Source: an uncultured Tateyamaria sp. (GTDB taxonomy: Bacteria; Pseudomonadota; Alphaproteobacteria; Rhodobacterales; Rhodobacteraceae). From it: 64,000 nucleotides of DNA. The translations under genes were made by a program, and so were the position numbers. Below are positions 5,065-50,899 of this stretch, one piece after another; positions within the stretch are counted from its first letter, which is position 1, and each line of letters opens with the position of its first letter. The notes beneath the pieces were generated by a model. The model was not told the origin of the DNA. It made no database searches and saw nothing but the letters and a program-made list of their open reading frames with translations. The stretch covers positions 1,302,001 through 1,366,000 of the forward strand of contig NZ_CANNCF010000001.1 of assembly GCF_947503045.1 (NCBI RefSeq). The letters are read 5' to 3'.

Positions 5065-5097
5065 GCGCGCCCTAAGGTACTTAAATCTTCTGATTTG

Positions 5098-5123
5098 GGC
5101 CGTCCCGACCGGGGCGGCCTTTT
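5098..5123 (+). terminator. Rho-independent terminator after nuoA
   Basis: A 9-bp GC-rich stem (5098-5106 pairs with 5111-5119, one T-G wobble) with a GACC loop is followed by TTTT. It lies 34 bp behind the nuoA stop. It would end or attenuate transcription between nuoA and the rest of the nuo operon. Confidence 0.75.
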
Positions 5124-5467
5124 GAATTCAATTGGCACCTATTGTTGCTTCAATCGGGGCGCACTGTGTCAAAAGGCTGGCGTTTGCGTCACCTCGGGGT
5201 GGCGGCGTATGCACGGTATTGAGCATGTTGCGTGTGACCTCCCCAGTCCGTTCAACCAAATCTTCCCCACTTCAAGGTAACGCAGGGGCAGGGGGCCAAT
5301 CAGCAAAAATCTTCCGATTTTTCGTTTCGAAAATTACCTGTGGTTGAATCAGACGGAAATTTCCCTTTACTTCACGTCAACTTTTTTCGAACCGGCGAAG
5401 GGCCGAGACTGCGCATTGGTTCGTATTTGGCAACAATGATAACGGTTCGGCTCAATTGTGCGTCTTT
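5124..5467 (+). other. Non-coding gap between the nuoA terminator and the candidate structured RNA
   Basis: No open frame here looks like a gene: the available frames give short, low-complexity proteins. The stretch is less GC-rich than the flanks. It contains one perfect 7-bp hairpin with a TTCC loop (5305-5311 with 5316-5322) and a TTGAAT at 5344 with a TTACTT-like box 17 bp on, a weak promoter candidate. It probably carries the promoter or promoters for the downstream RNA element and nuoB. Confidence 0.4.
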
Positions 5468-5652
5468 GTGCCCTGCGCGATTCGCTCGTTTCCTCCGGTT
5501 TTGTCTTCCCTGACGCCGCCTAGGTGGGGCGGCAAATGCCGCCCGCGACACGTCCCGTCTGGCGCGGTGCATTCCCACACCGGCGCAGGGGCCAGAACCC
5601 ATGCGACAAGCCGCCCGGATCGGCGCATGGCGCGTTGACCCCCTCAGGGCGC
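5468..5652 (+). ncRNA. Candidate structured RNA of about 185 nt between nuoA and nuoB (possibly 6S-like)
   Basis: The ends pair in an 8-bp closing stem (GTGCCCTG 5468-5475 with CAGGGCGC 5645-5652). Inside are three hairpins: 5527-5533 with 5538-5544 (7 bp, AAAT loop); 5562-5569 with 5578-5586 (8 bp, one bulge); and 5599-5604 with 5625-5630, continued by 5610-5613 with 5621-5624. No plausible protein is encoded. Length and a closed terminal stem resemble 6S RNA, and short segments (TTCG after the closing stem, TCCCTGA, TGCGACAA) recall 6S consensus. The three-hairpin fold is less rod-like than 6S, however. It could instead be a structured nuoB leader. The pairings are seen; the identity is inference. 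Confidence 0.45.
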
Positions 5653-5724
5653 TAGGATACATGGGAAAAGAATACTCAAAGGTGGCGATTTGCCGCCTGC
5701 CTGACTGCAGGAGCCAGAGAACAG

Positions 5725-6310: not shown

Positions 6311-6919
6311 ATGACCGAAGCCCTGAACGAACTCGGCGCCTATATCGAAGCCAAACGGCCCGATTGCGTGCTGCAATGGGACGTCACCCATGACGAGTTG
6401 AACGTGGACGTGGCCCCGGCCAACATCGCGGGCCTTGTCGAGTTCCTGCAAGGCGACTCGACCTGCAAATTCTCGTCCCTCGTGGACATTACGGCGGTTG
6501 ACTATCCGGGCCGGGCCAAGCGGTTCGACGTGGTCTATCACTTCCTGTCGATGTACCAGAACCACCGCATCCGCCTGCGCGTGTCGATCCGCGAGGATCA
6601 GATGGTGCCCTCGATCACGGATGTGCATCCTTCGGCCAACTGGTTCGAGCGCGAGGTGTTCGACATGTTCGGCATCCTGTTTTCCGGCCACCCGGACCTG
6701 CGCCGGATCCTCACCGACTACGGCTTTCGCGGCTATCCGCTGCGCAAGGATTTCCCAACCACGGGGTATACCGAGGTCCGCTATGACGAGGTGGAAAAAC
6801 GGGTGGTTTACGAGCCTGTGTCCCTCGTTCAGGAATACCGTCAGTTTGATTTCATGAGCCCATGGGAGGGTGCCGAATACATCCTGCCCGGCGACGAGAA
6901 GAAACCTGAAGAGGCGTGA
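6311..6919 (+). CDS. nuoC: NADH-quinone oxidoreductase subunit C
   Basis: Peripheral-arm subunit of complex I without cofactors, packed against NuoD. The 202 residues include the family signature around [15 protein letters not shown] and the C-terminal [19 protein letters not shown]. It is a separate gene, not a NuoCD fusion as in enterobacteria. GAGGAG lies 7 bp before the ATG. Two small accessory genes separate it from nuoD. Confidence 0.96.
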
Positions 6920-6920
6920 C

Positions 6921-7094
6921 GTGGATATGCTGATCTGGATCATTATCGCGGCGCTGACCATCATCCCGATGTTCAAGCTGCTGCCGCATTTCGGCATCAA
7001 CGCCTACTGGGCCTTTGTCTGCGTGATCCCGATCGGGACGATCGCGCTGCTGTGGTTCATGGCGCTGAAGCTGCAAGAGCTGGAGAAGCGGTGA
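6921..7094 (+). CDS. Small two-helix membrane protein between nuoC and the NTF2-like gene
   Basis: About 57 residues with two hydrophobic segments (MLIWIIIAALTIIPMF and WAFVCVIPIGTIALLWF) and a short charged C-terminus (KLQELEKR). A GTG at 6921 is preferred because GAAGAGG is 6 bp upstream; ATG 6927 is the alternative. The start lies 1 bp behind nuoC and the stop overlaps the next ATG by 1 bp, so it is co-translated within nuo. I do not recognise a named family. It could be an accessory membrane subunit of this lineage's complex I. Confidence 0.65.
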   Translation: MDMLIWIIIAALTIIPMFKLLPHFGINAYWAFVCVIPIGTIALLWFMALKLQELEKR

Positions 7095-49352: not shown

Positions 49353-49473
49353 GATGCCTCGGCTTATTGTCTTGCAGAGGCGGGCGCTATCACGGGATCC
49401 GGGCATGCTACATGCGCGATTTTGTCCCTGGGCCAAAGGTCGCTCATTTACGTGGCGGCACATCCAGGCTTGG

Positions 49474-49514
49474 GGCGGCGCACATCCCATGAGGATTTGC
49501 GCCGCCTTTGTTTT
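49474..49514. terminator. GC-rich hairpin in the gap before the PilP-like gene
   Basis: GGCGGCGCA (49474-49482) pairs with TGCGCCGCC (49498-49506) around a 15-nt loop, followed by TTTGTTTT on the plus strand. The upstream minus-strand gene ends at 49521, so the hairpin sits 15 bp behind it, but the T-run is on the other strand. It may slow minus-strand polymerase or end plus-strand antisense transcripts. Confidence 0.45.
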
Positions 49515-49520
49515 GGGTCT

Positions 49521-50396
49521 TCAGACGACGTATTTGCGATCCGGGATGGCGCCCTTGGAAATCAGCAACTTGATCATCGCGTCAAATTTCAGCTTTTGAA
49601 TGGGGCTGGTCTTTGGCTCTTTCTTCTTGACCTGTTCAAAGACCTTTGGCGCCTTTTTGCGTGTGTTGTAGTCCATTTGCAGCTCGATCATCTGTTTCAT
49701 CAGCTTGAGCAGCGACGTGTCGTTCACATTCTCAAAACCGCAGATCACCAGCTTTTTGGCATCCATTTTCACAAGGTCGGCCCCGGCGGACAGCCCCTTT
49801 TGTTCGCGGATGGCATCCTTGATCAGGAAGGCTTTCCACTTGATGCCTGACTTTTTGCACGCGTTTGTCGCTTCGACTTCGTCGTCCATGTAAAGCGAGA
49901 TCATGATGTCCTTGACTGCGGCTTTGTTCGTCCCGCCCAGCCGTTCGGTGACGACGCCCACCTTGCCATAGCGGCTTTCGCACTTCTTGTCGGCGATCTT
50001 GCGGCAGATCTTGTTGAGCGGAGAGCCCTTTTCAAAACGCGTGTCGTAGAACGCGCCCAGCAGGCGCTTGTTGAACAGGTCGCGGAATTCCTTGTTCAGG
50101 ACCCGTCCCATCACGTCAAGCTTGGAGGCGGCTTCGCTTTGTGCGCCGGCCATGATCTTGTCGAGTGCCCCTTTCAACTGCCCATCCAGTTGAATGCGCG
50201 TGCTCGCATCGGGCGCGAGGAACTCGGTGTAAATCTTATAGCCCTTGGGGTTTTCGTCGATAAAGCTGAGCTTGGCGGCGGCGTTCGGCCCTGCGGTCTT
50301 GATGACAAATGTGTTGAAGACCACGCTGAGCGCGCGGTTGGCCAGCATTTCGTCGACGTTTCCGGGAAAGTTTTCGCCGAGGAGTTTGATGGGCAT
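49521..50396 (-). CDS. Basic protein with an RGS-like N-terminal region
   Basis: A 291-residue, Lys-rich protein. Residues about 16 to 118 read as an RGS (regulator of G-protein signalling)-like helical bundle: RALSVVFNTFVIKTAG (compare F-x-x-F of RGS), KIYTEFLAPDASTRIQLD (compare KIYxEF...A...-N/Q-L-D), and MGRVLNKEFRDLFNKRLLGAF (compare FLxSxxY). The C-terminal about 170 residues are unassigned but helical and basic. It ends in front of a hairpin and stands between the PilP-like and DUF1801 genes. AAAGGA precedes the ATG. Eukaryotic RGS proteins accelerate GTP hydrolysis by G-alpha, but bacterial RGS-like proteins are rare and their targets unknown. Confidence 0.5.
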   Translation of the reverse strand: MPIKLLGENFPGNVDEMLANRALSVVFNTFVIKTAGPNAAAKLSFIDENPKGYKIYTEFLAPDASTRIQLDGQLKGALDKIMAGAQSEAASKLDVMGRVLNKEFRDLFNKRLLGAFYDTRFEKGSPLNKICRKIADKKCESRYGKVGVVTERLGGTNKAAVKDIMISLYMDDEVEATNACKKSGIKWKAFLIKDAIREQKGLSAGADLVKMDAKKLVICGFENVNDTSLLKLMKQMIELQMDYNTRKKAPKVFEQVKKKEPKTSPIQKLKFDAMIKLLISKGAIPDRKYVV

Positions 50397-50497
50397 TGCA
50401 TCGTCCTTTCGATGTAAATCCTCTGGGCCTGTCCTGGCCCGGTTCAAGGAGGAAACATCTTGGACGGGGGTTTTATTCGCGGGGTCGTGAAAGAAAT

Positions 50498-50899
50498 TTA
50501 CGAGGTGGGCAGAACGCGTTTGTAGCGAAAGGCCATTTTGGCGAGATGGCGCAGGGCGTCTTGGGGCAATTCGGCGTCCGGTTGCAGGAACAGCGCCCGG
50601 GGTGCGGCGTAGCGAAAGGCGGCCGGAAAGTCGGATTGCATGCGTGCGCACAGGTCCGTCTTGCAATCCATGTAGACGCCCAGACCATCTGCATCGCCTC
50701 TCCAGCTCATCCGGAGCGTCGTGCCGCCCTTGCGCGGACGCCAGGCCGGTTCGCCCCATTTCAGGGATTCATCAAGTGGGGGCAGGTCGAGTGCTGTGGC
50801 CGTCTGCCGCCACTCTGCGCGTACCGCAAGCGCCATGTCAGCGGCCCATGCGGGCCAGTTGTAGATGACCTGGAGGACGGGGTTGATCTGATGATCCAT
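50498..50899 (-). CDS. DUF1801 (YdhG-like) domain protein
   Basis: A 133-residue soluble protein: INPVLQVIYNWPAWAADMAL, LDESLKWGEPAWRP, RMSWRGDADGLGVYMDCKTD (together typical of DUF1801), and a C-terminal helix with ALRHLAKMAFRYKR. The family has a double-psi/YdhG-type fold and no known enzymatic role. ATG 50899 is preferred over GTG 50908. It follows purF after 43 bp. Confidence 0.75.
   Translation of the reverse strand: MDHQINPVLQVIYNWPAWAADMALAVRAEWRQTATALDLPPLDESLKWGEPAWRPRKGGTTLRMSWRGDADGLGVYMDCKTDLCARMQSDFPAAFRYAAPRALFLQPDAELPQDALRHLAKMAFRYKRVLPTS

What the first reader, a model, noticed from the sequence alone, without database searches (positions are those of the whole stretch)
49521..50396. 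RGS-like domain in a bacterial protein of unknown function
Seen in sequence: residues about 16-118 follow the RGS helical pattern, with an F-x-x-F near the start, KIYTEFLAPDASTRIQLD in the middle (RGS proteins have KIYxEF...A...NLD there) and an FRDLF/LLGAF segment where RGS has FLxSxxY. The C-terminal about 170 residues match nothing I know. Known: RGS domains are chiefly eukaryotic and act on heterotrimeric G-alpha, which bacteria lack. Inference: a rare bacterial RGS-like protein acting on another GTPase or only sharing the scaffold.
Basis: partly seen in the sequence, partly recalled or inferred. Interest (0 to 1): 0.72.

Follow-up and report, generated by a model that had tools for sequence, protein, structure and literature searches.

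The report
Mobile bacterial RGS-domain protein family
A marine bacterium carries several copies of a gene whose protein begins with an RGS domain, the module that switches off G proteins in animals and plants, although no such G protein was found in its genome; this copy has lost the usual contact residues and probably does a different job.

Summary
The protein at 49521-50396 (-) begins with an RGS domain. Alone it scores below Pfam's cut-off, but a profile of 21 relatives, none recruited by an RGS model, hits solved RGS proteins at E 1.3e-8 (first non-RGS 0.43). Four of 19 full proteins scanned pass Pfam's cut-off. All 50 listed fold matches of the domain model are RGS.

New facts: five full copies and no G-alpha were found in this genome. 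This copy is an insertion; 17 of 17 relatives have the site empty. Family genes carry one of two ECF-type promoter motifs (12 A, 11 B, 4 neither, of 27), and the class follows the genome: 22 of 22 same-genome pairs agree. In three B-type genomes an ECF sigma gene with the same motif lies beside the RGS gene. The RGS4 N128-like Asn is kept in 14 of 21 members; this copy lacks N88, N128 and D163.

Best reading: a patchy, mobile Roseobacteraceae family forming an ECF-sigma regulon, using the RGS fold to bind a bacterial partner, perhaps a GTPase. This copy is probably not a G-alpha GAP. Partner unknown.

The parts
49521..50396 (-). RGS-domain protein gene, 291 aa
   Evidence: ORF; homologues and paralogues; dN/dS 0.15 against the 48%-identical G017 gene, with dS 3.1, near saturation
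49995..50396 (-). RGS domain with a short N-terminal beta-hairpin (residues 1-134)
   Evidence: Profile against PDB; AF2 model with strands 3-5, 8-10 and helices 14-19, 21-35, 37-48, 53-60, 72-83, 86-119, 126-133; Foldseek
49524..49994 (-). C-terminal helical part (residues 135-291) of unknown family, with the conserved KKLxxCGFxN motif near residues 214-223; possibly two related modules
   Evidence: Alignment; no Pfam relative and no convincing PDB relative; module 1 against module 2 only weak (hhalign probability 16%, E 0.0016)
50451..50478 (-). Putative alternative-sigma promoter, class A: GAATAA-N16-GTTTCC, first base 82 nt before the ATG
   Evidence: Only match in the window even with 1 mismatch; 3 strict matches in the genome, all before RGS genes; class A (loose) before 12 of 27 family genes, among them 5 of 5 full copies of this genome
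49474..49506 (-). Hairpin just after the stop codon (14-nt arms, 93% complementary); a possible transcript end, without a T-run
   Evidence: pair I2; not listed as a terminator
49393..50497 (-). Approximate extent of the inserted segment, between the stop of the upstream gene and the conserved upstream region of the PilP-like gene
   Evidence: 17 of 17 fetched relatives carry the neighbours side by side

Best explanation
Shown: the gene encodes a homologous RGS domain fused to a basic helical C-terminal part. It is one copy of a diverged multi-copy family, found here only in Roseobacteraceae. This copy is an insertion, and the family genes of one genome share one class of alternative-sigma-like promoter even when the proteins are only distantly related. 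In three class-B genomes an ECF sigma gene beside the RGS gene carries the same motif before itself. Inferred: an ECF sigma factor switches on the RGS genes of a cell together under some stress. The proteins then act in the cytosol as binding modules, using the face that in eukaryotic RGS grips the GTPase switch regions. Members that keep the RGS4-N128-like Asn may still grip a P-loop GTPase. This copy, with Lys42, Gln69 and Arg111 in place of N88, N128 and D163, more likely binds a partner without speeding GTP hydrolysis. The domain probably came from a eukaryote by horizontal transfer.
For: RGS homology. Copies. No G-alpha over the cut-off: (best 15.6 bits, cut-off 48.8; all 14 control genomes ring below the cut-off too). 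Insertion. Promoter classes: 12 A, 11 B, 4 neither of 27 genes; 22 of 22 same-genome pairs agree, 0 of 20000 label shuffles as high; after dropping syntenic orthologues 14 of 14, 91 of 20000. Neither class is one clade of the protein tree (which grouped only 18 of its 21 rows). ECF sigma genes in L054, L064, L065 with a class-B motif 61, 61 and 103 nt before them, and a zf-HC2 gene, typical of anti-sigma factors (recalled), next to the sigma gene in L064. Contacts: N128-like Asn 14 of 21, N88-like Asn 6 of 21, D163-like Asp 2 of 21 and Asn 7 of 21; their meaning from a passage of PMC8252600.
Against: No partner, expression or activity is known. The neighbouring genes scanned (40 of 54 listed) are mostly unrelated housekeeping genes. 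The sigma factor for class A, the window's class, was not found. Class B was noticed by eye before it was counted. The L054 zf-HC2 counterpart gave no Pfam hit. A eukaryotic origin was not tested with eukaryotic sequences. The N128-like Asn could be a helix cap rather than a contact. No signal-peptide predictor was run.
Confidence: 0.5

Rival explanations
1. The proteins are effectors delivered into a eukaryotic host (alga, sponge or plankton) to act on host G-alpha.
For: No G-alpha was found in the bacterium. Two members (L051, L059) keep Asn, Asn and Asp at all three contact positions. A member lies in Tateyamaria sp. Alg231-49; host association of this genus appears only in abstracts of a search listing.
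Against: The window copy lost all three contacts. No secretion-system operon was seen among 40 neighbours scanned; the window's downstream neighbour is PilP-like with a sub-cut-off T2SSC match, but it is present in all 17 relatives without the RGS gene. No export signal was seen by eye.
Confidence: 0.13
2. A GTPase-activating protein for a bacterial GTPase, with real catalytic effect, in this copy too.
For: N128-like Asn in 14 of 21 members; a UreG/CobW-type gene beside L010/L012 and an SRP54 GTPase gene beside the L049 group.
Against: The window copy lacks all three contacts. The two GTPase neighbours are two cases among about 17 sites and may be chance.
Confidence: 0.15
3. A single-gene mobile cassette whose product serves competition or phage defence inside the cell; the RGS fold is incidental.
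For: Empty sites in 17 of 17 relatives, a broken tandem copy on C4, a transposase as next predicted gene in L059.
Against: No match for 5 members in PADLOC or 5 in PHROGs; none for the window protein in phages or plasmids, nor for four alignments in viral contigs; no paired immunity-like gene was seen.
Confidence: 0.12
4. The likeness to RGS is convergent or chance: an all-helical fold of separate origin.
For: The single sequence scores below threshold; Foldseek E-values are weak (best 6.3e-3) and query TM-scores 0.31-0.54; only one of five models was confident.
Against: Profile E 1.3e-8 with only RGS proteins down to E 0.1; four members over Pfam's cut-off; all 50 listed structure hits are RGS.
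Confidence: 0.04

Closest known systems
RGS domain, Pfam PF00615 (RGS2, RGS1, RGS4, RGS16, RGS10)
   Same: Same domain by profile and by predicted fold; some members keep the E-N and I/V-N motifs of the G-alpha contact face.
   Different: Bacterial; a beta-hairpin K-I-x-G-x-x-Y-P-D before the domain; unrelated, mostly basic helical C-terminus; the window copy has K, Q, R at the three key contacts.
RGS-fold domains of SNX13/SNX25, axin and PDZ-RhoGEF
   Same: RGS folds, here also among the profile or structure hits. That some do not act as classic GAPs is recalled.
   Different: Eukaryotic, with other partner domains.
ECF-sigma promoters of Alphaproteobacteria (EcfG type, GGAAC-N16/17-CGTT, recalled)
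   Same: Two-part motif of fixed spacing; in class A the distance from the GAA core to GTT is 19 nt, as in the N17 form.
   Different: Class A reads GAATAA-N16-GTTT, class B TGAACC-N16-NNAC; a candidate sigma gene was found for class B only.

Membership tests
RGS domain (PF00615) | Significant profile similarity | tested here: met
   Family level: E 1.3e-8 against PDB RGS2; 16 of 21 domains match PF00615 at E<=1; L013, L051, L052, L058 exceed the cut-off, 4 of 19 full proteins scanned. The window protein alone does not (13.3 bits).
RGS domain (PF00615) | RGS helical fold | tested here: met
   Predicted model only; all 50 listed Foldseek hits are RGS by title, 45 of 50 at probability 0.80 or more, query TM 0.31-0.54, none at E<=0.001.
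Canonical G-alpha GAP (RGS4 type) | Residues N88, N128, D163 contacting the switch regions | tested here: not met
   Window has K42, Q69, R111 (meaning). L051 and L059 have all three.
Canonical G-alpha GAP (RGS4 type) | A G-alpha substrate in the same cell | tested here: not met
   No G-alpha over the cut-off in G000 (97.9% complete).
Canonical G-alpha GAP (RGS4 type) | Speeds GTP hydrolysis | not testable with these tools
   Needs purified protein.
ECF sigma regulon | Shared two-part promoter with fixed spacing before the genes | tested here: met
   23 of 27 family genes carry class A or B within 200 nt; shuffle means 0.007 (A) and 0.075 (B) for 25 genes with 150 nt.
ECF sigma regulon | A cognate, autoregulated ECF sigma gene | tested here: inconclusive
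   Candidate for class B in L054, L064, L065. None found for class A; an ECF sigma gene 3.1 kb from the RGS gene in L011 has no such motif before it.
Secreted effector | Export signal or secretion-system linkage | tested here: inconclusive
   No secretion-system operon among 40 of 54 neighbours, apart from the PilP-like gene that all 17 relatives share; no signal peptide by eye; no predictor and no genome-wide search was run.
Anti-phage defence protein | Match to a known defence family | tested here: not met
   0 matches for 5 members in PADLOC.

The most novel reading that the evidence does not exclude
Roseobacters took up an RGS domain from a eukaryote, spread it through their genomes, and rewired each copy to the resident ECF sigma factor; they now use it to control bacterial P-loop GTPases: a stress-induced RGS-GTPase system without heterotrimeric G proteins. 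Diverged copies such as this one serve as non-catalytic binders.
Probability: 0.22. Interest if true: 0.85.

Novelty: new variant of a known kind. Interest (0 to 1): 0.7.

Why it matters
RGS domains are commonly treated as eukaryotic and tied to G-alpha. A bacterial family under purifying selection, some of whose members keep the G-alpha contact residues, offers a way to ask what an RGS domain does in a cell without G-alpha and whether it can govern other GTPases. The shared promoters, and an ECF sigma gene beside some copies, make its regulation directly testable.

Tried and rejected
Collection searches: P0001 found nothing in phages, plasmids or the first genome-contig scan.

Wide spread was not found: in 385 class genomes the RGS profile rang in G000 and G705, and G705's match lies in a transketolase, a false match. 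PF00615 rang in 1 of 249 phylum genomes, G000, and in 2 of 198 family genomes, G000 and G191, none over the cut-off. This model is insensitive: in G000 it found one of six copies. The 14 control genomes did not ring.

Genomic partner: the neighbours scanned give no shared operon. UreG-like and SRP54 neighbours were considered as GTPase targets and left as possible chance. How the insert moves: no convincing target duplication or terminal repeat. Internal repeat of the C-terminal part: weak. Tree of 21 domains: 10 of 18 inner branches open, so little history can be read; the window pairs with L011 (95/90); neither promoter class is one clade. phmmer of L052 alone found no PDB match at E<=1; L051 found RGS10 at 0.0023.

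Literature: searches listed no report of bacterial RGS domains; the one hit concerns unrelated Rgs growth proteins of Sinorhizobium. They cover open-licence PMC papers only. A possibly relevant comparative-genomics paper (Gene 475:63) is not held, so earlier mention cannot be excluded.

Rows dropped: of 29 ORF hits, 21 were used in A9. Left out: a 51-aa fragment on L017, two pieces on L054, partial L057, L063/L066 (insertion) and L064/L065 (weak). Searches used 25 genes, one search used 27. L067 (G191) was fetched; the family model did not match it.

Full report
What was claimed and what is there. Alone it gives a sub-threshold Pfam RGS match (13.3 bits, E 0.11) and no RGS in PDB by phmmer. 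That would be inconclusive.

Relatives settle the domain. Whole-genome protein searches found a 26%-identical paralogue in the own genome (E 7.7e-17), matches in 4 of 20 genomes of the genus at E<=0.1 and in 5 of 394 of the family at E<=0.001, own genome counted. A profile from nine rows (A1) found 8 of 394 family genomes and 6 of 20 genus genomes. None of these was recruited with an RGS model. From 29 ORF hits in the fetched stretches, 21 RGS-region rows were aligned (A9). Against PDB this profile gave RGS2 at E 1.3e-8, then RGS1, 5, 16, 10, 18, 4 and others; the first non-RGS sequence had E 0.43. Scanned singly, 16 of 21 rows match PF00615 at E<=1, best 6.9e-8. Of 19 full proteins scanned, L013 (31.1 bits), L051 (26.0), L052 (27.0) and L058 (27.9) pass the 23.9-bit cut-off and L059 just misses it (23.8); three of the 19 with no RGS match at all are L005/L012, L015 and L016, and L055 and L063 also have none. 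The window's eight-row subfamily alone still finds RGS2 at 6.2e-5; an engineered protein scores 0.0025 there, above many true RGS chains.

Structure. With a three-row alignment (window, Tateyamaria sp. Alg231-49, Phaeobacter sp. B1627) the full-length model is poor (pLDDT 61.5), yet 6 of its 14 weak Foldseek hits are RGS. The domain-only model is good in the best of five (82.7, pTM 0.78; the others 42-52). Its 113 Foldseek hits have E-values no better than 6.3e-3, but all 50 rows listed are RGS domains by title, 45 of 50 at probability 0.80 or more.

Where it lives. G008, of the window's genus, has a contig of the same length as that of Tateyamaria sp. Alg231-49, so the window is probably from that genus (inference). 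The own genome has five full RGS copies and a broken tandem one with a stop. In a class-wide draw no further genuine genome appeared among 385. PF00615 in 249 phylum genomes rang only in G000, but that model finds only one of the six copies there. So within what was sampled the family is patchy and seen only in Roseobacteraceae. No match was found in phages, plasmids or viral contigs at the sensitivities used.

The window copy is an insertion. The gene upstream of it (50498-50899) was searched in the genus: 18 of 20 genomes have it, the own one included. In all 17 other loci purF, this gene, the PilP-like gene and the SDR gene lie in a row with no RGS gene between. G017, which has the closest relative of the window protein (48%), carries it elsewhere (L011) while its own site is empty (L096). 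No clear repeats mark the ends. Some other sites are shared: L064, L065, L054 and in part L011 have the same surroundings with different family members, as do L014 and L050, so there may be preferred sites or fast divergence in place.

Promoters. Upstream of the family genes a motif recurs: GAATAA, 16 bases, GTTT(C/T)C (class A). Among 25 family genes 9 have it strictly and 12 loosely (GAATWA-N16-GTT), first base 66-84 nt before the start codon; dinucleotide shuffles gave means of 0.000 and 0.007. Of the 100 loci held at that point 28 matched, all loci with an RGS gene; they are overlapping copies of nine sites. In the window the motif is unique even with one mismatch. In 20 genus genomes the strict motif occurs 17 times, the reversed control 7 times. 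Seven of the 17 precede RGS genes: 3 of 3 in G000, 2 of 2 in G008, 1 of 1 in G011, 1 of 3 in G017. The other ten do not, among them the 1 in G012 and 2 in G016. In G009 and G010, where no RGS gene was detected, one precedes a YceI-domain protein gene. A second motif, TGAACC-N16-NNAC (class B), noticed by eye, stands before 8 of 25 genes within 150 nt (shuffle mean 0.075).

The class follows the genome, not the protein. With 200 nt and 27 genes there are 12 A, 11 B and 4 with neither (L015, L016, L057, L059). Genomes with more than one classed gene are uniform: G000 5 A, G008 2 A, G017 2 A, G311 2 A, G012 3 B, G016 4 B. All 22 same-genome pairs agree; 0 of 20000 label shuffles do as well. With syntenic orthologues dropped, 14 of 14 agree, with 91 of 20000 shuffles as high. 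On the protein tree neither class is one clade: A-type L017 pairs with B-type L053, and B-type L052 joins the A-type L049 group, though with modest support. So copies seem to be wired to the resident regulator.

A candidate regulator for class B. In L054, L064 and L065 the RGS gene lies beside an ECF-type sigma gene (Pfam sigma regions 2 and 4). A class-B motif lies 61, 61 and 103 nt before the predicted start of that sigma gene, and 117, 65 and 65 nt before the RGS gene; in L064 and L065 another lies 56 nt before a further gene, whose L064 protein has a HAMP-like stretch (E 8e-5). Next to the L064 sigma gene are a zf-HC2 protein gene and a subtilase gene. Autoregulation of this kind is typical of ECF sigma factors (recalled). 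For class A, the window's class, no sigma gene was identified: an ECF sigma gene in L011 has no such motif before it. They strengthen the regulation part; the odds of the explanation were left unchanged and interest was raised from 0.68 to 0.7.

Do the contacts survive? In RGS4, Asn88, Asn128 and Asp163 make three critical contacts with G-alpha switches (passage of PMC8252600). By the HMMER alignment to RGS2, the matching columns hold Asn in 6 of 21 (N88), Asn in 14 of 21 (N128), and Asp in 2 of 21 with Asn in 7 of 21 (D163). L051 and L059 hold Asn, Asn and Asp. The window protein has Lys42, Gln69 and Arg111. So the family includes forms that look able to grip a GTPase, but this copy is not a likely GAP. 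No G-alpha was found in G000: the best match is 15.6 bits against a cut-off of 48.8, and the same weak signal is seen in all 14 control genomes.

Selection and chemistry. Ten gene pairs give dN/dS 0.08-0.46; several dS values are near saturation. 21 of 25 proteins are basic (pI 9.3-10.1); L050, L051, L063 and L066 are acidic. The C-terminal part has no Pfam or convincing PDB relative and only a weak hint of two related modules.

Mechanism. Shown: RGS homology, copy number, insertion, shared promoter classes, constraint. Inferred: ECF control in this strain, stress induction, cytosolic location, partner binding, eukaryotic origin. I hold the domain identity at about 0.95 and the function as stated at about 0.5. 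Literature searches (listings, plus passages of PMC7572916, PMC8252600, PMC9283941 and PMC3718340) showed no description of bacterial RGS domains; most subscription papers are not held.

Noticed in passing
L054, L064, L065 (sigma genes at 5079-5678, 6323-7012, 6349-7062): An ECF sigma gene, in L064 with zf-HC2 and subtilase genes beside it, sits next to the RGS gene and carries the class-B motif before itself.
   Followed up: partly
L105 and L106 (G009, G010): The class-A motif stands about 80 nt before a YceI-domain protein gene in two relatives where no RGS gene was detected, so the class-A regulator may have other targets.
   Followed up: partly
L049, L055, L058, L060; L010, L012: One orthologous RGS gene lies beside an SRP54 GTPase gene (scanned in L055); another lies beside a UreG/CobW-type gene. 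Two GTPase neighbours may be chance.
   Followed up: partly
G000:C4:356930-358269 (L017): A full RGS gene is followed by a broken tandem copy with a stop, a sign of duplication and decay.
   Followed up: no
window 49446-49458 and 50496-50508: An 11-of-13 direct repeat lies near either end of the inserted segment, 1050 bases apart; it may be chance.
   Followed up: no
L063 and L066 (G012, G016): Near-identical 461-aa members with an insertion in the RGS region and, by eye, a further module shared with L059.
   Followed up: no
G191:C2:94300-94527 (L067): A PF00615 match of 21.2 bits in another genus that the family profile does not find; possibly a second bacterial RGS lineage or chance.
   Followed up: no
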